Source of the DNA: Deltaproteobacteria bacterium RBG_13_43_22 | Lineage (GTDB): Bacteria; Desulfobacterota; RBG-13-43-22 | Direction of reading: 5' to 3' | NCBI GenBank assembly: GCA_001797675.1 | Contig: MGQB01000001.1 | Coordinates: 1-64,000 of the forward strand | Length of the DNA: 64,000 nt | In this document: positions 2,100-12,965 of the stretch, piece after piece | Numbering within the stretch: position 1 is the stretch's first letter | How the letters are laid out: every line of letters begins with the position of its first letter | Position numbers and translations under genes: made by a program | Notes under the pieces: generated by a model | The model's database searches: none | Told to the model about the DNA's origin: nothing | The model's input: the letters and a program-made list of their open reading frames with translations, nothing else

Positions 2100-4736
2100 A
2101 TGGCGGCAAAAACCGATTCGAGAAGAATTGTTTTAGTTACCGGTGATTTGACCATGGATTGGAACATTGCCCATCTCCGGCGTGTAGAATTTGATAGTCA
2201 TACCTGGAATCCGGATGATTGGACACGTGCCTGCTGGCAGCCAGGAGGTGCAGCGCTCCTTGGGGATTTGATCGAAGAGGTCACCCTTCAGATGCGACAG
2301 AATGAAGGGGAGAAATATAAGGTAAATAGAATCCAGGAGTTGGATCAATCCATCACAACGTGCGATAAACGATTTCATCACTCCTATGCACTTTGGTCTC
2401 TTTTCAAATACAGCAAAAAAGCAAGTAAGGACAATCTCACCTGGCGTGTCTCTGAATTTATTGGGATGGACCGCAGTAATGACGGTTGGACTGAGATTAT
2501 TAAACAACAGTTGCAAGATGTTCCCAATCCTGAGTTGATAGTTCTCGATGATGCCGCCCTCGGTTTCCGTGATCATCCCGAACTCTGGTCCGGGCTTCTT
2601 AAAAAAGGAAAAAAGCAACCTTGGATTCTTCTCAAGATGTCGCGACCGATAGCTCAAGGTCAACTATTCGAGCATCTGCACCAGAAATGGGCAGAACGAC
2701 TGATCGTCGTTATGGGAGTGAATGATCTGAGGCGAACTGAGGTACAAATCAGTCGAGCACTATCTTGGGAACGAACCGCTCAGGATCTCGTTTGGGAGCT
2801 TGTCCATAATCCGCGCGTGAATGCTCTATCAGATTGTGCCCATGTGATCATTCCGTTTGATACAGCAGGCGCTCTTCTTCTATCCCGGAAAAAAGCCGAA
2901 TTGTTTTATGACACCCATACACTCGAAGGCATGTGGGCTCAGGATTATCCAGGGGGCATGATTGGTTACAATTCATGTCTTATGGCAAGTATAGCACGTC
3001 AACTGATGCGCTCTCAGGTAAAGCCGGATATCCATGCCGGTATTCAATCCGGATTGTCTGCCATGCGAAAACTTCATCAAGAGGGATATGGCGATAGAAC
3101 CTTAATAACATCCGATGTCCAACTTTCATTTCCTGTCAAGTTCATTGCCGCTGAGGTGATGAAAGATGCAAAGCTGTTTGCAATGGCGGATGTTCAAGAT
3201 CCGGTTTACTTCCTCAAACTCTCGCCGACGGAATTTGCTGGCAAACCACAAACCAATACATGGACGATTCTCCAGGATAAATATTCAGATTTTCTCAATC
3301 AGTTAGCGCAGCAAATTGTGCTGGAAGGGCCGGATTCCGCTATGCATGATGTTCCCTTGGGGAAATTCCGCCACCTCCTGACAGCAGACCGTCGTGAAAT
3401 CGAAAACTTCCGCAGCATCAGCAGTGTGATTGGTGAGTATTGCAGTCAAAGTCACCAGAAACATCCGCTCTCCATTGCTGTTTTCGGGGCACCCGGATCA
3501 GGAAAATCATTCGGCATCACGGAGATAGCCGAATCGTTATCTCCGGATTTAATCAAGAAAATGGAATTCAACCTGTCTCAATTGAGCGATGTGGAAGCGC
3601 TTCATGACGCCTTGCATCAGGTTCGGGATGTTGGCTTATCCGGAAAAATTCCGCTCGTATTTTGGGATGAATTTGACACCGCTCTGGAGAACCAACCCCT
3701 GGGCTGGCTGCGTCATTTCCTTGCGCCCATGCAAGACGGTGCTTTTCAACAGGGACAGATCACCCATTCCATTGGTTCGGCGATTTTCATTTTTGCCGGT
3801 GGTACCAGCGAGAGCATGGAGGCATTCGGAAAAGGGATAGACAGTAAAATATTCCGGGACATCAAAGGTCCCGATTTTATGAGCCGCTTGAAAGGCTTTG
3901 TCAATATTTTGGGACCGAATCCAATCGGCGGCGACATTTCAACCGATCCGCATTTTGTCATACGCCGGGCCATACTCCTGCGTTCTCTTCTTATCCGCTC
4001 GTGCCCGCGATTGTTAGAGAAAAAGGATGGAAAAGAATCGTTGAATATCGATTCCGGCGTCCTTTTGGCATTTCTTGCCATCAGCAAATACAAACACGGT
4101 GTACGCTCAATGGAATCTTTACTAGCTATGAGCCAGTTGTCGGGTAAGAATCGCTTGGAACGGTCGTGTCTCCCCTCCGAGGCACAGCTAAACCTGCACG
4201 TCAATGGTTTAGAGTTTCAATCCCTCGTTCAGCAAATAATTCTCACTCCCGAGATATTGGAGAAGCTCGCCGAATCCGCTCATCAAGCTTATTGTGATGG
4301 TAAGAAAAGAGATGGTTGGCGCTACGGGGAAGAAAAGAGCGAAGGGAAAAAGATCCATCCGTTGCTTGTGCCCTATGATGATCTCCCGGAATGGGCTAAG
4401 GAGTCGAATCGGGTCAATGTGCGAACAATTCCACAAAAGCTTTCTGCTGCCGGATATATCATGATTCCTTCGCGAAGCAACCAGCCGGCATTGGAATTTC
4501 CGGGAGACGATCTGGAAAAACTCGCACGATTGGAACACGACATCTTTGTGAAGGAAAAACTCGATGCAGGATTCAAGCTCGGAAAGCCGACAAAAGATGA
4601 TCCTTATCGTAATGAGTACCTTGTCGAATGGGAGCAATTACCTGATGGGATAAAGCAAATCGACCATGATATGGTGAGAGGAATTCCCCGTATCCTCTCC
4701 AATGCTGGTTATGCTATTGAAAAGACGAGTAAATAA
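2100..4736 (+). CDS. AAA+ ATPase with two C-terminal RyR (ryanodine-receptor) domains and a PfkB/ribokinase-like N-terminal region
   Basis: SD ggaggag; Walker A GAPGSGKS, Walker B LVFWDEFD; C-term DGWRYGEEKSEGKKIHPLLVPYDDLPEWAKESNRVNVRTIPQKLSAAGY and a second degenerate copy match RyR repeats; N-term VLVTGDLTMDW...PGGAALLGDLIE is PfkB-like. Confidence 0.75.
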   Translation: MAAKTDSRRIVLVTGDLTMDWNIAHLRRVEFDSHTWNPDDWTRACWQPGGAALLGDLIEEVTLQMRQNEGEKYKVNRIQELDQSITTCDKRFHHSYALWSLFKYSKKASKDNLTWRVSEFIGMDRSNDGWTEIIKQQLQDVPNPELIVLDDAALGFRDHPELWSGLLKKGKKQPWILLKMSRPIAQGQLFEHLHQKWAERLIVVMGVNDLRRTEVQISRALSWERTAQDLVWELVHNPRVNALSDCAHVIIPFDTAGALLLSRKKAELFYDTHTLEGMWAQDYPGGMIGYNSCLMASIARQLMRSQVKPDIHAGIQSGLSAMRKLHQEGYGDRTLITSDVQLSFPVKFIAAEVMKDAKLFAMADVQDPVYFLKLSPTEFAGKPQTNTWTILQDKYSDFLNQLAQQIVLEGPDSAMHDVPLGKFRHLLTADRREIENFRSISSVIGEYCSQSHQKHPLSIAVFGAPGSGKSFGITEIAESLSPDLIKKMEFNLSQLSDVEALHDALHQVRDVGLSGKIPLVFWDEFDTALENQPLGWLRHFLAPMQDGAFQQGQITHSIGSAIFIFAGGTSESMEAFGKGIDSKIFRDIKGPDFMSRLKGFVNILGPNPIGGDISTDPHFVIRRAILLRSLLIRSCPRLLEKKDGKESLNIDSGVLLAFLAISKYKHGVRSMESLLAMSQLSGKNRLERSCLPSEAQLNLHVNGLEFQSLVQQIILTPEILEKLAESAHQAYCDGKKRDGWRYGEEKSEGKKIHPLLVPYDDLPEWAKESNRVNVRTIPQKLSAAGYIMIPSRSNQPALEFPGDDLEKLARLEHDIFVKEKLDAGFKLGKPTKDDPYRNEYLVEWEQLPDGIKQIDHDMVRGIPRILSNAGYAIEKTSK

Positions 4737-4757: not shown

Positions 4758-5411
4758 ATGAATTCTTCAAAAAGTCCTTTTCGAATCCGGCTCGGAGTCA
4801 CCGGGCACCGGGCAATAAATGATCCGGAGAACATTGCCCTTAAGGTAAAAGAGATATTACGTTCTGAAATATATGAGCTTCTGGAAAATGAAATTTCTCA
4901 AGAAAAAACAAATCCGGTGGCGTTGATGTTTACCGTTGTGACTCCCCTCGCCGAGGGTGCAGATCGTCTAATCGCGAAGGAGGTCTTAAAGTTCCCTGAA
5001 TCGGATATCGAGGTTGTTCTGCCCTTTGCGAAGGATGACTACATGCAGGATTTCGAAACCGAGGAATCGCGACAGGAATTCGAAGAACTCTACCAAAAAT
5101 CACAAAAGCCGATCGTGTTAAAAAACAACCTATCAGCGGGAGCGTTCTCGACAATTGAGCGAACCGAAGCTCGCAATAAAGCTTACGAAGATGCGGGGCG
5201 ATATGTGGTAACCCATTGTGACATATTGATTGCTCTATGGGATGGTCGTCCATCTCGGGGCAGAGGAGGAACCGCCGAGATTGTTGCCTATGCGCGCGAA
5301 GAAAAGCGTCCTTTGATTATTATCTCGACCGAGAATCTTGAACATATTGTGATCGGAAAAGGAAGGAAAATTAACGAATTGACTTCCTTTAATTTCGAGC
5401 CACGGAAGTAA
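4758..5411 (+). CDS. SLOG/LOG-like Rossmann-fold protein (putative nucleotide-ligand sensor or processing enzyme)
   Basis: N-term RLGVTGHR, ...VVTPLAEGADRLIAKEVL..., ...ALWDGRPSRGRGGTAEIVAYA; starts 21 nt after the RyR-ATPase gene. Confidence 0.75.
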   Translation: MNSSKSPFRIRLGVTGHRAINDPENIALKVKEILRSEIYELLENEISQEKTNPVALMFTVVTPLAEGADRLIAKEVLKFPESDIEVVLPFAKDDYMQDFETEESRQEFEELYQKSQKPIVLKNNLSAGAFSTIERTEARNKAYEDAGRYVVTHCDILIALWDGRPSRGRGGTAEIVAYAREEKRPLIIISTENLEHIVIGKGRKINELTSFNFEPRK

Positions 5412-5527
5412 TCATATGACCCACTCAAAGGATACTTTACGCTACCGTTGGAAAACCCTCCGCATTTTCATTTCTAAATATTTCTCGCGATATGCACATA
5501 AATGATTATAAATTTAAAGGCGATTTA

Positions 5528-8500
5528 ATGGAAAAGACAAAAATATCAGTAGAATGGCAAAAAGTGCATATCTTCATCTCTTCCACGTTCAACGATATGC
5601 ACGCAGAGAGAGACTATCTGGTTAAGAAGGTATTTCCAAAACTGCAGGACTGGTGTGAGAAACGCAAAATACGCATGGTGGATATCGATCTCAGATGGGG
5701 TGTATCGGAAACTGATACCATGAACAAAAAAGTAGTAAGCACATGCTTAAGGAATATAGATAAATGTAGGCCATTCTTTATTTGCCTTTTAGGACAAAGA
5801 CGCGGATGGGTGCCGAAAAGAGATGACATTTCCGACGATACATTTAAAGATTTTCCGGAAATCAAAAACTATGCAGACAATGCATCAGTTACGGAAATGG
5901 AAATTCTTCATGCATTAATAGATCCGCTGCATAAAACAAGGTCGTGTCTTCAGGAAGAATCTGGTGAGTATTACGATCCGGTAAAACACGCCTTTTTTTA
6001 TCTTCGCGATCCTTCATACCTCGATTTTTTGCCTTCAACGCCAGACTTGTTGCGCAAAGCATATACCAATGAGTTAGATGAGTTAATAGAGGATATATCC
6101 CGGCAGACCGCAGATAATGAGCTTAAAACCTGGCGGGAGAAAAAAATACCAGCAACAAACCGTCCCGTACGTAACTATAATGTCAAATGGAATTCCGAGG
6201 CACAAACACCTGAGCTTCGTACTCCTTTAACTAGTTCTTCCGATGAGCCTAAATCGAAAGTTTCGGCCAAGTGGAGGCGGTTATGGAAATTGGCAGGGAT
6301 TGACTTAGAGGACAGGGATATTTCAATACCCGAAGGCTTGCGGGAGAAAGCAGAAAAATTCAACACAACGTTCACAAAAGGAAGACTCGGTGAATTCAAG
6401 GCTGAAAACAAAGAGCTTAGTGATATTATTTTTTCTGATCTAACAGAAGCCATCCGAGAGCGGTTTTATGATCATATAGATATAGTAGAAGCTGAATCAG
6501 TAGATGAAACTGATTTACAGAAAGAGATCGACCAGCAGGAGCAATTTGTAGCTCTGAACAGTGTCGGGTTCATTCAACGCACAGGTGACTTCGACCAGTT
6601 AGATGCATATGCTGCTGATAACTCTCAAAAGCTTTTTGTGCTCACCGCTCCGGCAGGTATGGGAAAATCCATGTTCCTTGCAAAGTGGGTTGACAGGTAC
6701 AGGACAAAAGTCAATTCGGAATCTAATGAAAGCATACATTTCCGGTTTATTGGACAAAGTGACAAATCCACCGCGTTCTATAATATATGGTACTCGCTTC
6801 TCGAAGAAATAAAGGAGCATACGGGAAAACTTGAAGATGAGATTATAAAGGATGAACAGGGTAATGAAGACAGATTGGAAGCAATCCCTACCGATCCAGT
6901 CGAACTCCACAATTCACTTTATGACATACTCAGAAAGATCGGCACAAGAGGGAAAACCATAATAGTGCTTGATGCCCTTAATCAGCTTGAGACCGGACTT
7001 AAAGATCTAAACTGGCTACAGAGCGAATTGCCCGAAGGCATCAATATGATTGTGAGCTTCAAACGCGGCACTGAAGACACGGACGCAGAAAAACTATATG
7101 GAATATTGAAAGATAGTGCAGTGATTTCGGAAATAAAGCCGTTTGAAAGTACCGATGACCGAAAAAAGCTCATCGATGAATATCTCATGCAATATCTTAA
7201 AGAACTGGATCAAAAGCATATTAATGCATTACTGGAAATAGAAGCTTCAAAGAATCCGCTTTTCTTAAAGATTGTACTTAATGAGCTCCGCATTTTCGGT
7301 GCTTTCTTAAATATCAAAGATAAGATCCGCAATGATTTCGGAAATGATCCGCTATCCGCTTTTGAAGGAGTGCTGAAGAGACTTGAGAATGATCCGGCAT
7401 ATTCGTCAATTCCTCCAAAGATTTCTGTGCCATTAATCTTCGGTCTTCTTGCAAATTCCCGCTATGGCCTTTCAGCAGATGAACTGGTTCATATGCTTCT
7501 TGACACTCTCGGATATGAGAGGAAGGATGAAAATCTTAATCAAATAAAAGAAACCGTGTATCTCAATCTCCGCCAGATAAGGCCATATCTTTCGAGGAAA
7601 GAAGGCAGATATGATTTTTTCTATGAAAGTTTTAAAATTGCCGCTCTCAAGAGGTATGCAAATGAAAAATCAAATTATCAAATAAGTGGTTTAATGCAAG
7701 GGAAAGTACAATCCGATATAAATGCGGAAATTGTTACTTTAAAAATCAAAGACTGGCATAAAATACTTGCTGATTATTTTTACAAGCTTCCATTATGGGT
7801 GAAAAAGAATTCAAATAATGGCGGACAAAACCAAGAGCAGGAAAGCAGCCGGGAGGCTGATTATAATGATGATCCCAATAAACGCAAGGTGTCAGAACTG
7901 CCGTACCACCTTACAATGGCTGAGGATTGGGGTAGTGTTGAAGAAACGTTGTGCAATTTGTGGTTTGTAGAAGCAAAGGTGAGGGCTGGGATGGTTTTTG
8001 AGTTGCAACAGGATTATGCCGATGCACTCCGCCGGTTTCCAGAGATGCAGGAAAAGAAAAGGAAGGAGGAGGAGCAACAAAATAAAATCAAGAAATATAC
8101 TGATGAATTGATTGCCTATTCCAAAGCATGGAGTGAACGCCGCCGCCAATTGGCACTTGGCAAAGCAATAATCGAAGTAGAACCGCAACATCCGGAGCCC
8201 CCACCCTCCTGCCGGATGTGGACTCAGGACGAGATCGATTTGGAATGTCAGCGCATCATTGAAAATCCCACTCCTCTTGACACACTGTCCATCTTTAATG
8301 GATTTGTGATCTCACAGTGCCATACGCTGATTGAGAATGGTAGTGGTAGATGGCGGGGATTCGTCCTACAACATGCTTTAAACTATAGCCCCGCCGGGGC
8401 CGTTCACGACGCTGCCGCTTTGATCCTACCGACCCTTCAAAGGCCGTATTTTTCACGCCGCTGGTCAATCGATGAGCGTACCAATCCCATTCCAGCTCTT

Positions 8501-10678
8501 CTGCGTACCTTGAAACAAGAGTGGGGTGCCATGTGCGTGCGCGTGACTCCTGACGGACGATATGCAGTATCGGGCAGTGATCATGGTATGTTGAACGTCT
8601 GGAGCCTTGAGAGCGGTCAAAGCCTGCGGATCTTGAAAGGGCACACTGGTTCAATTTCTAGCGTGAGCTTGACGCCTGATGGAAAGCGTGCTGTCTCAGG
8701 GAGTTGGGACAAGTCGCTGCGCGTGTGGGATCTGCAGGACGGGCTATGTTTGTTTACCCTGGAAGGGCACACTGATTACTTTACTAGCGTGAGTTTGACG
8801 CCTGATGGACGACGCGCTGTGTCCGTGAGTAAAGACAAAACGTTACGGGTATGGGATTTGGAGAGTGGTAAGTGTCTTAAGTGTCTGTGGAAATCGGGAA
8901 ACAATCAATACTTGTCGCCATTCTTAAGGGTTGCAGTGACACCGGATGGTCGGCGTGCTGTGTCGTGCGATATAGACATGAGGGTGCTGGTATGGAACCT
9001 AGAGAGTGGACTATGCCAGCGTTTTTTGGAAGGGGCATTGCTAGCCAACCTAGCACCTGATGGGCGGCGTGCCGTGTTGGCGGATCGGGACGGCACGCTA
9101 TATGTGGGGGATCTGGAAAGCGGTCAGCGCCTTCGGATCTTGGCATGGCCGCCCGATTTCGACATATTTAAAGATGGATATATGATGTCGGATGGTCGTT
9201 TTGCGGTCTCAGCGAATGTGGGCAAACCGCTTCAAGTGTGGGACCCGGAAACGGGCCAATCTCTGCGGACCCTGGAAGCGTACAGTTCTCGGGTCACGGA
9301 GGTGAGTTTGACTCTGGACTGCCGGTGCGCTGTATCGGGGAGTTGGGATGGCACTTTGCGAGTATGGAATATAGAGAACGGACAAGGACAGCAGCACGTG
9401 GAACGACACATGGGCGACGTGAATTGTGTGAGCGTGACGCCTGATGGTCGGCGAGCTGTTTCAGCTAGTGATGACGGCACATTGCGCGTATGGGACACGG
9501 TGAGTAGCCAATGTCTGCGGATCTTGAGCGGCCACGCCAATAGGGTTAACTGTGTAAGCGTGACGCCTGACGGAAAGCATGCTGTATCAGGGAGCTGGGA
9601 CATGACGCTGCGAGTGTGGGATCTGGAAAGTGGTCAGTGCCTACGAATCTTAGAAGGACATACTGACGTGGTCAATTGTGTGAGTGTGACCTCGGACGGA
9701 TTACACGCTGTCTCGACTACTGGCCGTGGACTCGACCCAACCAACCTTGACAACACGCTACGGGTGTGGAACTTGGAGAGCGGGCAATGTTTGCGAACCT
9801 TGAATGCAGAGAAGCCAGGCGGCATCCATAGCTTGAGCGTGATACCTGGCTCAATGCGCGTGGTGTTAGGTATTGGTGACGGGAGTCTGATGTTATGGGA
9901 CCTGGAGAGCGGGGAATGCCGAAGGACCTCGGAAGCACATAAAGGGATGATGAGTAGTGTGAGTGTAACACAGGATGGGTGGTACGTAGTATCGGGAGGT
10001 TGGGATAAAACGATGCGCGTCTGGAGCACTGAGAGCGGTATCCGCCTGCAGACCTTGAAAGGGAACACTGGTAAAATTTCTAGCGTGAGCGTGACTCCAG
10101 ATGGAACGCGCGCTGTGTCAGGGAGCTGGGACAGTACGATCTGGACGTGGGACCTGGATCTTAAGAATATGTTTCCAGAGCTTCTATCCTACTTTCTTGC
10201 TCCCGCCCCGATTCTTTCTGTTGCCATATCTCCTTCGGGGTCTTTGGTTGTGTGCGGAACAAGCGCTGGTGAAGTATTATTCATGGAACTGCGTGGCATC
10301 AAGTTCGGTACAAATATTGAACCCCAACCTATTCTTTCTCAGGATGAAGGGTTAAGAGGTGCGCTTGCAGCTAACATAGAGAAATCCATAAAAACTAGGA
10401 TTCATGAGGAGGATCGAAAAGTTGAAAACGGACAAGAGAAATCGCAATCTTCTATCTTATGCCCACATTGTGGCGGATCGGCCCACAAAAATAGCATGAC
10501 TGGTGCATGGCTGGGTTTTTTATCGATGCTCATTGTATCCATCCTGTTACCGTTACATAGCCTTTGGTGGTTATTCCTTTCAATTCCAATGGGGTTTTTA
10601 GCAATATTTGTTTGTATTCCGCATTTATTTACACCCTACCATTGTAAATCATGCGGTAGTGTGTCTAAGATGAAGTAG
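5528..10678 (+). CDS. DUF4062 - NACHT/STAND NTPase - about 14 WD40 repeats - zinc-ribbon/2-TM C-terminus
   Basis: ORF 5492-10678; start at 5528 (MEKTKISVEWQ) preferred; IFISSTFNDMHAERDYLVKKVFPKL (DUF4062), Walker A TAPAGMGKSMFL, Walker B KTIIVLDALNQL, WD blades ending LRVWDLESGQCL, C-term CPHCGG-(TM)2-CKSCG. Confidence 0.85.
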   Translation: MEKTKISVEWQKVHIFISSTFNDMHAERDYLVKKVFPKLQDWCEKRKIRMVDIDLRWGVSETDTMNKKVVSTCLRNIDKCRPFFICLLGQRRGWVPKRDDISDDTFKDFPEIKNYADNASVTEMEILHALIDPLHKTRSCLQEESGEYYDPVKHAFFYLRDPSYLDFLPSTPDLLRKAYTNELDELIEDISRQTADNELKTWREKKIPATNRPVRNYNVKWNSEAQTPELRTPLTSSSDEPKSKVSAKWRRLWKLAGIDLEDRDISIPEGLREKAEKFNTTFTKGRLGEFKAENKELSDIIFSDLTEAIRERFYDHIDIVEAESVDETDLQKEIDQQEQFVALNSVGFIQRTGDFDQLDAYAADNSQKLFVLTAPAGMGKSMFLAKWVDRYRTKVNSESNESIHFRFIGQSDKSTAFYNIWYSLLEEIKEHTGKLEDEIIKDEQGNEDRLEAIPTDPVELHNSLYDILRKIGTRGKTIIVLDALNQLETGLKDLNWLQSELPEGINMIVSFKRGTEDTDAEKLYGILKDSAVISEIKPFESTDDRKKLIDEYLMQYLKELDQKHINALLEIEASKNPLFLKIVLNELRIFGAFLNIKDKIRNDFGNDPLSAFEGVLKRLENDPAYSSIPPKISVPLIFGLLANSRYGLSADELVHMLLDTLGYERKDENLNQIKETVYLNLRQIRPYLSRKEGRYDFFYESFKIAALKRYANEKSNYQISGLMQGKVQSDINAEIVTLKIKDWHKILADYFYKLPLWVKKNSNNGGQNQEQESSREADYNDDPNKRKVSELPYHLTMAEDWGSVEETLCNLWFVEAKVRAGMVFELQQDYADALRRFPEMQEKKRKEEEQQNKIKKYTDELIAYSKAWSERRRQLALGKAIIEVEPQHPEPPPSCRMWTQDEIDLECQRIIENPTPLDTLSIFNGFVISQCHTLIENGSGRWRGFVLQHALNYSPAGAVHDAAALILPTLQRPYFSRRWSIDERTNPIPALLRTLKQEWGAMCVRVTPDGRYAVSGSDHGMLNVWSLESGQSLRILKGHTGSISSVSLTPDGKRAVSGSWDKSLRVWDLQDGLCLFTLEGHTDYFTSVSLTPDGRRAVSVSKDKTLRVWDLESGKCLKCLWKSGNNQYLSPFLRVAVTPDGRRAVSCDIDMRVLVWNLESGLCQRFLEGALLANLAPDGRRAVLADRDGTLYVGDLESGQRLRILAWPPDFDIFKDGYMMSDGRFAVSANVGKPLQVWDPETGQSLRTLEAYSSRVTEVSLTLDCRCAVSGSWDGTLRVWNIENGQGQQHVERHMGDVNCVSVTPDGRRAVSASDDGTLRVWDTVSSQCLRILSGHANRVNCVSVTPDGKHAVSGSWDMTLRVWDLESGQCLRILEGHTDVVNCVSVTSDGLHAVSTTGRGLDPTNLDNTLRVWNLESGQCLRTLNAEKPGGIHSLSVIPGSMRVVLGIGDGSLMLWDLESGECRRTSEAHKGMMSSVSVTQDGWYVVSGGWDKTMRVWSTESGIRLQTLKGNTGKISSVSVTPDGTRAVSGSWDSTIWTWDLDLKNMFPELLSYFLAPAPILSVAISPSGSLVVCGTSAGEVLFMELRGIKFGTNIEPQPILSQDEGLRGALAANIEKSIKTRIHEEDRKVENGQEKSQSSILCPHCGGSAHKNSMTGAWLGFLSMLIVSILLPLHSLWWLFLSIPMGFLAIFVCIPHLFTPYHCKSCGSVSKMK

Positions 10679-10804: not shown

Positions 10805-11738
10805 TTGGGGTCAGGTCTATTTTCTTGACATTAAGGTTCCAGGCTGTTAAGGGTTACTTATGGCCCGTCCTTTACGCATAGAGTTTCCCGGTGCGGTTTA
10901 TCATATCACCAGTCGAGGGAATGACCGCAAAGAGATTTTTGAGGATGATTTGGATCGGAAGGCCTTTCTCGAAATCCTTTACCGTGTCTGCACCCGCTAT
11001 CACTGGCTTTGTCATGCCTTTTGCCTGATGGATAATCATTATCACCTGCTGATCGAAACACCGGAAGGAAACCTTTCCATAGGAATGAGACAGTTAAACG
11101 GTGTTTATACCCAGGCCTTCAATAGGGTTCATGGTAGGGTTGGACATTTGTTTCAAGGTCGATTTAAGGGGATTGTGGTGCAGAAGGACAGTCATCTTCT
11201 TGAGGCATCCCGTTATATTGTTATCAACCCGATACGGGCCAAGCTCGTCAAAAATCCCAATCAGTGGATATGGAGCAGTTATTCGGCAACGGCCGGGCAG
11301 GGAAGTTCTCCCCCCTTTCTTACCGTAGATTGGGTTTTGGGGCAACTTGCGTCCGAAAGAAAGATCGCAGAAAGAATCTATCGCGAGTTTGTAAGGGCAG
11401 GAATACGAGCAGAATCCATTTGGAAGGATTTGAGAGGTCAAAGCATTCTGGGGGAGGATGATTTTGTGGTAGGAATGAGGAGCCATATTGCGGGTAAAGA
11501 ACACATCCCCGAGATATCAAAAAGGCAACGCTTCATAAACAGGCCCATCCTGACAAAGATTTTTACCACCGAGGTGCTTCAAAGCAAAGAAGCGAGAGAT
11601 GAACGAATTATTGAGGCGGTGGAGAGATACGGATATTCCCAGAAACAAATCGCTGATCATTTAGGGCTTCATTTTGCCTCGATAAGCCGAATTATACGAA
11701 AAAAAGAAACAATGTTAAGAATATAGACCTGACCCCAA
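10805..11738. mobile_element. RAYT unit bounded by perfect 16-bp inverted repeats
   Basis: TTGGGGTCAGGTCTAT (10805-10820) and ATAGACCTGACCCCAA (11723-11738) are exact reverse complements flanking the RAYT gene. Confidence 0.8.
10860..11726 (+). CDS. REP-associated tyrosine transposase (RAYT, Y1_Tnp family) with C-terminal HTH
   Basis: MARPLRIEFPGAVYHITSRGNDRKEIF, CLMDNHYHLLIETPEGNLS (HUH-type motif plus Tyr), C-term YGYSQKQIADHLGLHFASISRIIRK HTH. Confidence 0.93.
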   Translation: MARPLRIEFPGAVYHITSRGNDRKEIFEDDLDRKAFLEILYRVCTRYHWLCHAFCLMDNHYHLLIETPEGNLSIGMRQLNGVYTQAFNRVHGRVGHLFQGRFKGIVVQKDSHLLEASRYIVINPIRAKLVKNPNQWIWSSYSATAGQGSSPPFLTVDWVLGQLASERKIAERIYREFVRAGIRAESIWKDLRGQSILGEDDFVVGMRSHIAGKEHIPEISKRQRFINRPILTKIFTTEVLQSKEARDERIIEAVERYGYSQKQIADHLGLHFASISRIIRKKETMLRI

Positions 11739-11787
11739 CGAACACTTATTTCCCGGAAAACAGTAAATACGGAATATACAATATTTC

Positions 11788-11816
11788 TTGACAAAAGCAA
11801 TTTATCCGAATAAATT
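11788..11816 (+). promoter_or_regulatory. Sigma70-type promoter with palindromic operator-like sequence
   Basis: TTGACA (11788-11793), 17-nt spacer, TAAATT (11811-11816); inverted arms AGCAATTTA/TAAATTGCT at 11796-11804/11811-11819. Confidence 0.65.
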
Positions 11817-11825
11817 GCTCTTACT

Positions 11826-12965
11826 ATGAAAATTAAAAAAAGACTTTTGGACCTCAACTTGCCGCCCGGGAAATCCGCTTTCCTATGGGGCCCACGCAAA
11901 GTCGGGAAAACCTATTGGATTTCCCATACCTTGTCAGGCGTTGAGATTATCGATTTATTGAAAACCGACGTTTTAGCGGAATATATCACCCGCCCGGCGC
12001 TTTTGCGGGAACGCTACCAAAATCACAAAGGTCTCATAGTCATTGACGAAATTCAAAAAATCCCTCCTCTTCTCGATGAAGTCCATTGGCTTATTGAAAA
12101 TAGAAATTTATCGTTTATATTAACCGGCTCCAGTGCCCGAAAATTGCGCCGGGGACATGCCAACCTGTTGGGCGGCCGGGCCTGGCGAAGGACTATGACC
12201 CCCCTTTCCTATGAGGAAGTAACCGGTTTTAGTCTGGAACGAATTATGGTTTCCGGGCTGCTCCCGCCCCACTTTCTCTCCCCTGATCCCATCGAAGAAA
12301 TACGCTCTTATGTTGCCGATTACCTTAAGGAGGAAATTGTTGCTGAAGCCCTGACTCAAAATATTCCTGCCTTTAATGAATTTTTAAGGGTGGCGGCGAT
12401 TACTTCCAGCGAGTTGATCAATTATGTGAACATCGCCAGGGAAACAGGGGTTTCCCATAGAGTTGTTCGTACTTATTTTGATATTCTGGAAGATACTTAT
12501 CTGGGTTTTAGGATTCCTCCTTGGAAGAAGTCGCAAAACCGGCGCATGATCACTACCGAAAAATTTTATTTATTCGATGTGGGTATAGCCAATTATTTGG
12601 CCAGACATCAACCTAAAATCGGAAGCCCTGAATTCGGCAAGGCCTTCGAACACTATATTTTGATGGAATTAAAAGCCTACCAAGCCTATCGCAATCCCGA
12701 AATGGCCATAACCTTCTGGCGGACATCAACCGGACGTGAAGTGGACTTCATTCTTAACGACAAGGCACTGGCACTGGAAGTAAAGGGTTCATCCCGCATT
12801 CACGAAAGCGATATCGGTTCTTTGCAGGCCCTGTTAGATGACGGACCGGTTAAAAAATGTTGTTTGGTTTGCCTGGAAAAGCAGCCGCGCCATTTGACAA
12901 AAAAGGTCGAATCGATCCCCTGGCAAATGTTCGTCGAACGGTTATGGAACGGTGAATTTGAATAA
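11826..12965 (+). CDS. AAA_14 / DUF4143-type ATPase
   Basis: GPRKVGKTYWI Walker A, LIVIDEIQKIPPLLDEVHWLIE, SFILTGSSARKL, C-term FEHYILMELKAYQAYR...FWRTSTGREVDFIL. Confidence 0.92.
   Translation: MKIKKRLLDLNLPPGKSAFLWGPRKVGKTYWISHTLSGVEIIDLLKTDVLAEYITRPALLRERYQNHKGLIVIDEIQKIPPLLDEVHWLIENRNLSFILTGSSARKLRRGHANLLGGRAWRRTMTPLSYEEVTGFSLERIMVSGLLPPHFLSPDPIEEIRSYVADYLKEEIVAEALTQNIPAFNEFLRVAAITSSELINYVNIARETGVSHRVVRTYFDILEDTYLGFRIPPWKKSQNRRMITTEKFYLFDVGIANYLARHQPKIGSPEFGKAFEHYILMELKAYQAYRNPEMAITFWRTSTGREVDFILNDKALALEVKGSSRIHESDIGSLQALLDDGPVKKCCLVCLEKQPRHLTKKVESIPWQMFVERLWNGEFE

What the first reader, a model, noticed from the sequence alone, without database searches (positions are those of the whole stretch)
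2100..4736. Unusual PfkB-like + AAA+ + tandem RyR architecture
N-terminal VLVTGDLTMDWNIAHL...QPGGAALLGDLIEE resembles the opening of PfkB/ribokinase folds, and GMIGYNSCLMASIARQL occupies the place of the catalytic GAGD motif but lacks its Asp. This suggests a non-catalytic nucleotide/nucleoside-binding domain. It is followed by AAA+ (GAPGSGKS, LVFWDEFD) and two RyR copies (about 4260-4480 and 4515-4730), the second degenerate. RyR domains are best known from animal Ca2+ channels; their bacterial ligand is unclear.
Basis: partly seen in the sequence, partly recalled or inferred. Interest (0 to 1): 0.66.

Follow-up and report, generated by a model that had tools for sequence, protein, structure and literature searches.

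The report
Ribokinase-AAA-RyR gene in NAD-signalling operon
This bacterial gene fuses a sugar-kinase-like domain that has lost its catalytic residue, an ATP-driven motor and two copies of a domain known from animal calcium channels; it belongs to a widespread, apparently undescribed gene set built around NAD-derived signal molecules, most likely an anti-virus alarm system.

Summary
ORF 2100-4736 (878 aa) is a ribokinase-fold domain, an AAA+ ATPase and two RyR domains. AlphaFold2 of residues 1-452 (pLDDT 92) matches only PfkB/ribokinase kinases among the best 50 PDB hits, and the catalytic Asp is missing in about 95% of the family. Both RyR copies pass Pfam's cut-off.

The architecture is not a local oddity. 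Sixty-six relatives occur in about ten phyla, and the gene belongs to a module. In the window it is first in a tight run with a SLOG protein (gap 22 bp; folds like YpsA and the 3'cADPR-binding ThsA SLOG) and a DUF4062-NACHT-WD40 protein. DUF4062 was shown in 2026 to be a TIR-like NADase. Of 67 loci, 39 carry SLOG fused or adjacent, 24 carry TIR or DUF4062, and 18 carry a 2TM-TrkA channel-like protein (usually with its own RyR pair) or a SLATT protein; 50 carry at least one. Phage RyR domains bind or cleave 2'/3'cADPR (2026 preprint). The family's second RyR keeps that enzyme's H/W/H/D set in 32 of 42 copies; the window's own copy has lost W and H.

Best reading: regulator of an NAD+/ADP-ribose-signal immune module. 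Anatomy and association are shown; ligand and function are inferred.

The parts
2100..4736 (+). 878-aa ribokinase-like + AAA+ + RyR-RyR protein (the finding)
2100..3455 (+). N-terminal ribokinase/PfkB-fold domain (aa 1-452 modelled)
   Evidence: AF2 pLDDT 92.4; Foldseek PDB top 50 all ribokinase-type kinases
2142..2162 (+). GDLTMDW, counterpart of the first ribokinase substrate motif; G15, D16, D20 (nearly) invariant in the family
2244..2261 (+). GGAALL, counterpart of the ribokinase GG motif; G49, G50 (nearly) invariant
2952..2978 (+). GGMIGYNSC at the place of the catalytic GAGD; Asp absent in about 95% of the family
3297..4244 (+). AAA+ ATPase domain, divergent clade below all Pfam cut-offs; Walker A 3486-3509, Walker B 3654-3677, conserved K-x-PDF-x-SRL 3864-3890
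4251..4460 (+). RyR domain 1; key residues H-Y-H-N (RyDEP H75/W78/H100/D117 positions)
4515..4724 (+). RyR domain 2; key residues H-F-N-D, so lacking the adenine Trp and phosphate His kept by most relatives
4758..5411 (+). SLOG-fold protein, 217 aa, 22 bp downstream
   Evidence: AF2 pLDDT 87.3; Foldseek: YpsA 2nx2 E 4e-8, BcThsA SLOG with 3'cADPR 7uxs E 3e-4; homologues fused or adjacent in 39/67 loci
5492..10678 (+). DUF4062-NACHT/STAND-WD40 protein, 1728 aa
5570..5833 (+). core of the DUF4062 (TIR-like NADase) domain; SVTEME glutamates just after it (aa 135/137, nt 5894-5902) align with the SVTEME motif of human TEP1
   Evidence: PMC13174449
6617..7024 (+). NACHT/STAND P-loop NTPase (NPHP3_N-like)
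8492..10276 (+). WD40 repeats

Best explanation
The gene encodes the regulator/receptor of a modular NAD+/ADP-ribose-signal immune system. Shown: three domains (ribokinase fold without its catalytic Asp, AAA+ ATPase, two RyR) and recurrent clustering with SLOG, TIR or DUF4062 NADase-type proteins, and TrkA-RyR or SLATT membrane proteins. Inferred: on infection the NACHT-WD40 part of the third gene oligomerises and its DUF4062 head cleaves NAD+. The resulting ADP-ribose-type molecule is read by SLOG and by the RyR pair. The AAA+ motor, with the pseudokinase as a second ligand or trigger sensor, couples that reading to switching the response. In loci with a TrkA-RyR or SLATT protein the effector is probably a membrane channel; in the window the NADase itself is the likely effector and the RyR protein sets its threshold or resets it. 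The first RyR (Asn at the catalytic acid) looks binding-only; the second keeps the cADPR-glycosidase residues in most relatives and could degrade the signal there. In the window it has lost two of them, so it is probably at most a weak binder.
For: Ribokinase fold. No catalytic Asp. RyR identity. RyR residues: read against PMC13232231. SLOG fold nearest YpsA and cADPR-binding ThsA. DUF4062 in the window gene; TEP1 match E 3e-24 with the motif of its catalytic region kept; DUF4062 as an antiphage NADase: PMC13174449. Co-occurrence. SLOG fused in place of RyR in 14 members and in addition to RyR in L022 and L037. TIR/DUF4062 genes concentrate near the family gene: 13 within 500 bp in about 61 kb of available flank against 1 at 8-9 kb in about 50 kb. 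The genome has one DUF4062 and no RyR elsewhere. Replication outside the search that yielded the 66 loci: SLOG-SLATT next to L074, TIR next to L076, TrkA-RyR in the same genome as L092.
Against: No ligand, enzyme activity or phage phenotype was tested. Association is not universal: 17 of 67 loci show none of the partners within 6 kb, several of them not cut short by contig ends. A RyR-less paralogue with the same ribokinase-AAA backbone occurs beside other gene types, so the backbone is not intrinsically immune. TEP1 and KpSwz make linear ADPR, not cADPR, and phage RyR homologues with conserved residues mostly bind without cleaving (PMC13174449, PMC13232231). The window's RyR2 lacks two ligand residues. 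PADLOC finds no known defence system.
Confidence: 0.5

Rival explanations
1. A stress or metabolic regulator rather than an immune device: the ribokinase-AAA protein senses a nucleoside or sugar metabolite and remodels a partner, and SLOG/RyR track NAD(P) or ADP-ribose state.
For: A RyR-less ribokinase-AAA paralogue is spread through the same phylum, mostly one per genome, e.g. next to a hydrogenase-type subunit or a sensor kinase. A Streptomyces plasmid copy has no obvious defence neighbour.
Against: Patchy distribution (matches in 25 of 297 phylum genomes, most of them the paralogue), spread across about ten phyla, and partners typical of conflict systems (TIR, DUF4062, NACHT-WD40, SLATT).
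Confidence: 0.22
2. The RyR protein is mainly a signal-degrading off-switch (host-side counterpart of phage RyDEP): RyR2 cleaves 2'/3'cADPR and the AAA+ part only assembles it.
For: H/W/H/D in 32 of 42 RyR2 copies, against Asn at the Asp position in 42 of 44 RyR1 copies and in all 13 first channel RyR copies.
Against: The window copy has lost W and H; phage homologues with conserved residues mostly bind without cleaving (PMC13232231).
Confidence: 0.18
3. A fortuitous neighbourhood: the gene acts alone and neighbours change because it sits in defence islands.
For: 17 of 67 loci have none of the partners; the third gene varies widely.
Against: 22-bp spacing in the window and 4-25 bp or overlapping spacing to SLOG in many loci; SLOG fused into the same protein in 16 loci; RyR shared by the regulator and the channel-like protein.
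Confidence: 0.1

Closest known systems
Thoeris (ThsB TIR / ThsA SIR2-SLOG)
   Same: SLOG protein of the same fold as the cADPR-binding ThsA SLOG; NADase-type partner; NAD+-derived signal logic inferred
   Different: SLOG stands alone or is fused to the ribokinase-AAA protein, not to SIR2; DUF4062-NACHT-WD40 in place of ThsB; AAA+ pseudokinase-RyR protein added
Swarozyc (DUF4062 antiphage NADase, PMC13174449)
   Same: DUF4062 TIR-like domain with the conserved glutamate motif
   Different: NACHT-WD40 instead of the portal-binding helix-turn-helix/winged domain; three genes instead of one
Phage RyDEP and RyR-domain sponges (PMC13232231)
   Same: PF02026 domain with the same ligand residues at the same spacing (+3, +25, +42)
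   Different: Tandem and fused to AAA+ and pseudokinase, encoded in host genomes; here RyR1 lacks the catalytic Asp and RyR2 lacks W and H
Animal ryanodine receptor R12 tandem
   Same: Two RyR repeats in a row; phmmer E about 1e-25
   Different: Different protein; the tree gives no repeat-for-repeat kinship and is poorly resolved
PfkB/ribokinase sugar and nucleoside kinases
   Same: Fold; N-terminal GD..D and GG motifs
   Different: Catalytic GAGD Asp lost; roughly 100 residues larger than the matched kinases; no Pfam match
Bacterial TIR/SLOG/SLATT nucleotide-activated effector networks (Burroughs et al. 2015, recalled; paper not held)
   Same: SLOG, TIR and SLATT combinations, predicted nucleotide-gated membrane effectors
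   Different: Whether that paper describes the ribokinase-AAA-RyR protein could not be checked

Membership tests
PfkB/ribokinase superfamily (fold) | ribokinase-like fold | tested here: met
PfkB/ribokinase superfamily (active kinase) | catalytic Asp of the GAGD motif | tested here: not met
   Y 44, N 6, T 4, D 3; window Y290
PfkB Pfam family PF00294 | sequence above curated cut-off | tested here: not met
   no member matches
AAA+ ATPase | Walker A and Walker B | tested here: met
   GxPGxGKS and VFWDEFD (nearly) invariant
AAA+ ATPase | assignment to a named Pfam AAA family | tested here: not met
   best matches all below the curated cut-offs
RyR domain (PF02026) | score above curated cut-off | tested here: met
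   both copies
RyDEP-type cADPR glycosidase | H75/W78/H100/D117 set | tested here: not met
   window RyR1 HYHN, RyR2 HFND; met in RyR2 of 32/42 members
RyDEP-type cADPR glycosidase | cleavage of 2'/3'cADPR | not testable with these tools
   needs biochemistry
SLOG (partner gene) | SLOG Rossmannoid fold | tested here: met
   YpsA, ThsA SLOG, LOG and MoCo carrier proteins
DUF4062 TIR-like NADase (third gene) | domain above cut-off and conserved Glu motif | tested here: met
DUF4062 TIR-like NADase (third gene) | NAD+ hydrolysis | not testable with these tools
   needs biochemistry
Thoeris | ThsB TIR protein plus ThsA effector in one operon | tested here: not met
   no TIR_2 in the operon; SLOG without SIR2
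Swarozyc | DUF4062 with helix-turn-helix/winged auxiliary domain | tested here: not met
   NACHT and WD40 instead

The most novel reading that the evidence does not exclude
A previously unnamed, cross-phylum immune signalling system in which a ribokinase-fold pseudoenzyme on an AAA+ motor carries paired RyR domains that read, and in many members erase, a TIR/DUF4062-made ADP-ribose signal, with RyR-gated ion channels as effectors: a bacterial precedent for nucleotide-gated RyR channels.
Probability: 0.35. Interest if true: 0.85.

Novelty: new variant of a known kind. Interest (0 to 1): 0.64.

Why it matters
RyR domains are known from animal calcium channels, and only in 2026 was a ligand class (cADPR isomers) shown for phage versions. 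Here host RyR domains recur with SLOG, NADase-type and RyR-bearing TrkA channel-like genes, which makes 'what do bacterial RyR domains sense, and do they gate channels?' directly testable. The ribokinase-AAA backbone appears in no Pfam, NCBIfam or PADLOC family tried and could be a general switch onto which RyR or SLOG receptors are swapped.

Tried and rejected
Calcium signalling: rejected, since only the domain name suggests it. Active sugar or nucleoside kinase: rejected, as the catalytic Asp is absent family-wide. Origin of the animal R12 tandem from this bacterial tandem: tried with a tree of 98 RyR domains; animal repeats fall loosely with stand-alone bacterial RyR domains, most forks are unresolved, no repeat-for-repeat match, so not claimed. 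Profile-profile proof of PfkB homology: weak, so structure carries that claim. AAA clade by profile search of the PDB: only weak matches to many AAA+ groups. Burroughs 2015 (NAR) is not held, so prior mention of this architecture cannot be excluded. PADLOC and NCBIfam: nothing useful for the gene.

Full report
OBSERVATION. ORF 2100-4736 is intact and has full-length relatives. RyR (PF02026) is present at 4251-4460 and 4515-4724, both above the curated cut-off and the only two in the 3.2-Mb genome. phmmer against the PDB finds animal ryanodine receptors at E about 1e-21 with the whole protein and 1e-25 with the tandem alone. Walker A and B are intact and (nearly) invariant in 31 aligned relatives, but no Pfam AAA family reaches its cut-off.

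N-TERMINAL DOMAIN. No Pfam family matches the window's domain, and none of the 60 aligned members matches PfkB. AlphaFold2 on alignment A1 gives pLDDT 92.4 and pTM 0.93. All of the best 50 PDB matches are ribokinase/PfkB-type kinases (HldA, 1-phosphofructokinase, tagatose-6-phosphate kinase, ketohexokinase, pseudouridine kinase; best E 7e-11, probability 1.00, TM-score about 0.5-0.6 by target). The substrate-side motifs GD(x)3D and GG are kept (G15, D16, D20, G49, G50), but the position aligned to the GAGD Asp is Tyr in 44 rows and Asp in only 3. Alternative registers place Asn291 or Ser292 there; none is Asp in the window. It is therefore a ribokinase-fold pseudoenzyme by sequence; its ligand is unknown.

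FAMILY. A scan of 84,980 species genomes returned 66 loci from Chloroflexota, Acidobacteriota, Planctomycetota, Armatimonadota, Actinomycetota, Bacillota, Bacteroidota, Ignavibacteriales, Poribacteria, an archaeal MAG and others (MAG labels may include binning errors). Plasmid copies exist in Methylobacterium (gene annotated 'RyR domain-containing protein', near a SIR2 protein) and Streptomyces. In a draw of 297 genomes of the window's phylum 25 matched, most being a RyR-less paralogue of about 750-800 aa with the same ribokinase-AAA backbone (hhalign probability 94%, E 2e-7). Same-genus genome G009 holds a copy only 36% identical, and the window's RyR domains group with those of Planctomycetota and Bacillota MAGs; both suggest horizontal transfer.

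NEIGHBOURS. In the window a 217-aa protein follows after 22 bp. Its model (pLDDT 87) matches YpsA (E 4e-8) and then the BcThsA SLOG domain solved with 3'cADPR. The third gene, 81 bp on, is DUF4062-NACHT-WD40. Its DUF4062 part matches the solved TEP1 domain at E 3e-24, including SVTEME in the region of the catalytic Glu. DUF4062 domains are TIR-like NADases, antiphage in bacteria (Swarozyc) and active in TEP1 (PMC13174449). It is the only DUF4062 in this genome. Across 67 loci: SLOG fused or adjacent 39, TIR or DUF4062 within 6 kb 24 (HMM score over 30; 25 at the looser threshold), 2TM-TrkA (usually with RyR) or SLATT 18, any of these 50, all three classes 8. Where RyR is missing SLOG is often fused in its place; two members carry both. 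Other third genes include RelA/SpoT-TPR-LSDAT, sigma-54-activator-type and HEAT proteins. Independent cases from phylum genomes repeat the pattern.

RYR RESIDUES. In phage RyDEP, H75 and D117 are the catalytic pair for 2'/3'cADPR cleavage, W78 braces adenine and H100 holds phosphates; other phage RyR domains are cADPR sponges (PMC13232231). The spacing +3/+25/+42 fits the family's canonical RyR2 without gaps. RyR1: His 42/44, aromatic 43/44, His100 33/44, Asn instead of Asp in 42/44. RyR2: His 42/42, Trp 41/42, Asp 40/42, complete set 32/42. Channel RyR copies: first copy Asn 13/13, second copy Asn 9 and Asp 4. Window: RyR1 H-Y-H-N, RyR2 H-F-N-D. Mapping uses spacing and alignment, not the RyDEP sequence itself, which was not retrieved.

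MECHANISM. Shown: domains, conserved and lost residues, gene association. Following from published families: DUF4062 as NADase, SLOG and RyR as ADPR/cADPR binders. Inferred: NACHT-WD40 as infection sensor, RyR/SLOG as signal readers, AAA+ as switch, pseudokinase as second sensor, membrane proteins as effectors, RyR2 as eraser in intact members.

NOVELTY. The DUF4062 preprint mentions none of RyR, SLOG, PfkB or AAA, and the sections of the RyDEP preprint that were read do not describe this combination. Full-text searches found no description, and no library tried names the ribokinase-AAA backbone. Burroughs et al. 2015 could not be read, so 'new variant of a known kind' (NAD+-derived nucleotide immune signalling) is the safe filing.

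Noticed in passing
L078-L091 (e.g. L088:157-2430): RyR-less ribokinase-AAA paralogue of about 750-800 aa in many genomes of the window's phylum, mostly one per genome; in L078 it lies next to a hydrogenase-type small subunit, in L088 next to a sensor histidine kinase.
   Followed up: partly
L025:12285-14117 and homologues in L009, L011, L012, L015, L016, L022, L024, L028, L032, L035, L044, L063: Proteins with about two transmembrane segments, TrkA_N and two RyR domains; the L025 copy shows no canonical TVGYGD filter. Candidate RyR-gated channels.
   Followed up: partly
L033:11650-13683 and L004:11679-13715: RelA/SpoT domain fused to TPR and an LSDAT (TRPM-type SLOG) domain, directly downstream of the family gene; a possible alarmone synthase with a SLOG sensor.
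   Followed up: no
L046:3092-3391, L048:2255-2602, L075:1167-1502, L040:11704-12159: Small stand-alone RyR genes (99-151 aa) beside the family gene; those of L046 and L048 group loosely with the animal repeats in the tree.
   Followed up: partly
window 10860-12965: A Y1/IS200-like transposase-family gene with HTH and an AAA_14-DUF4143 gene follow the operon on the same strand, then genes such as yicC, gmk, UDP-glucose dehydrogenase and an HldA-like PfkB kinase on the other strand: the operon looks like an inserted island.
   Followed up: no
L069:1326-7574: SIR2-family gene of about 6.2 kb on the same Methylobacterium plasmid as a RyR-bearing family member.
   Followed up: no
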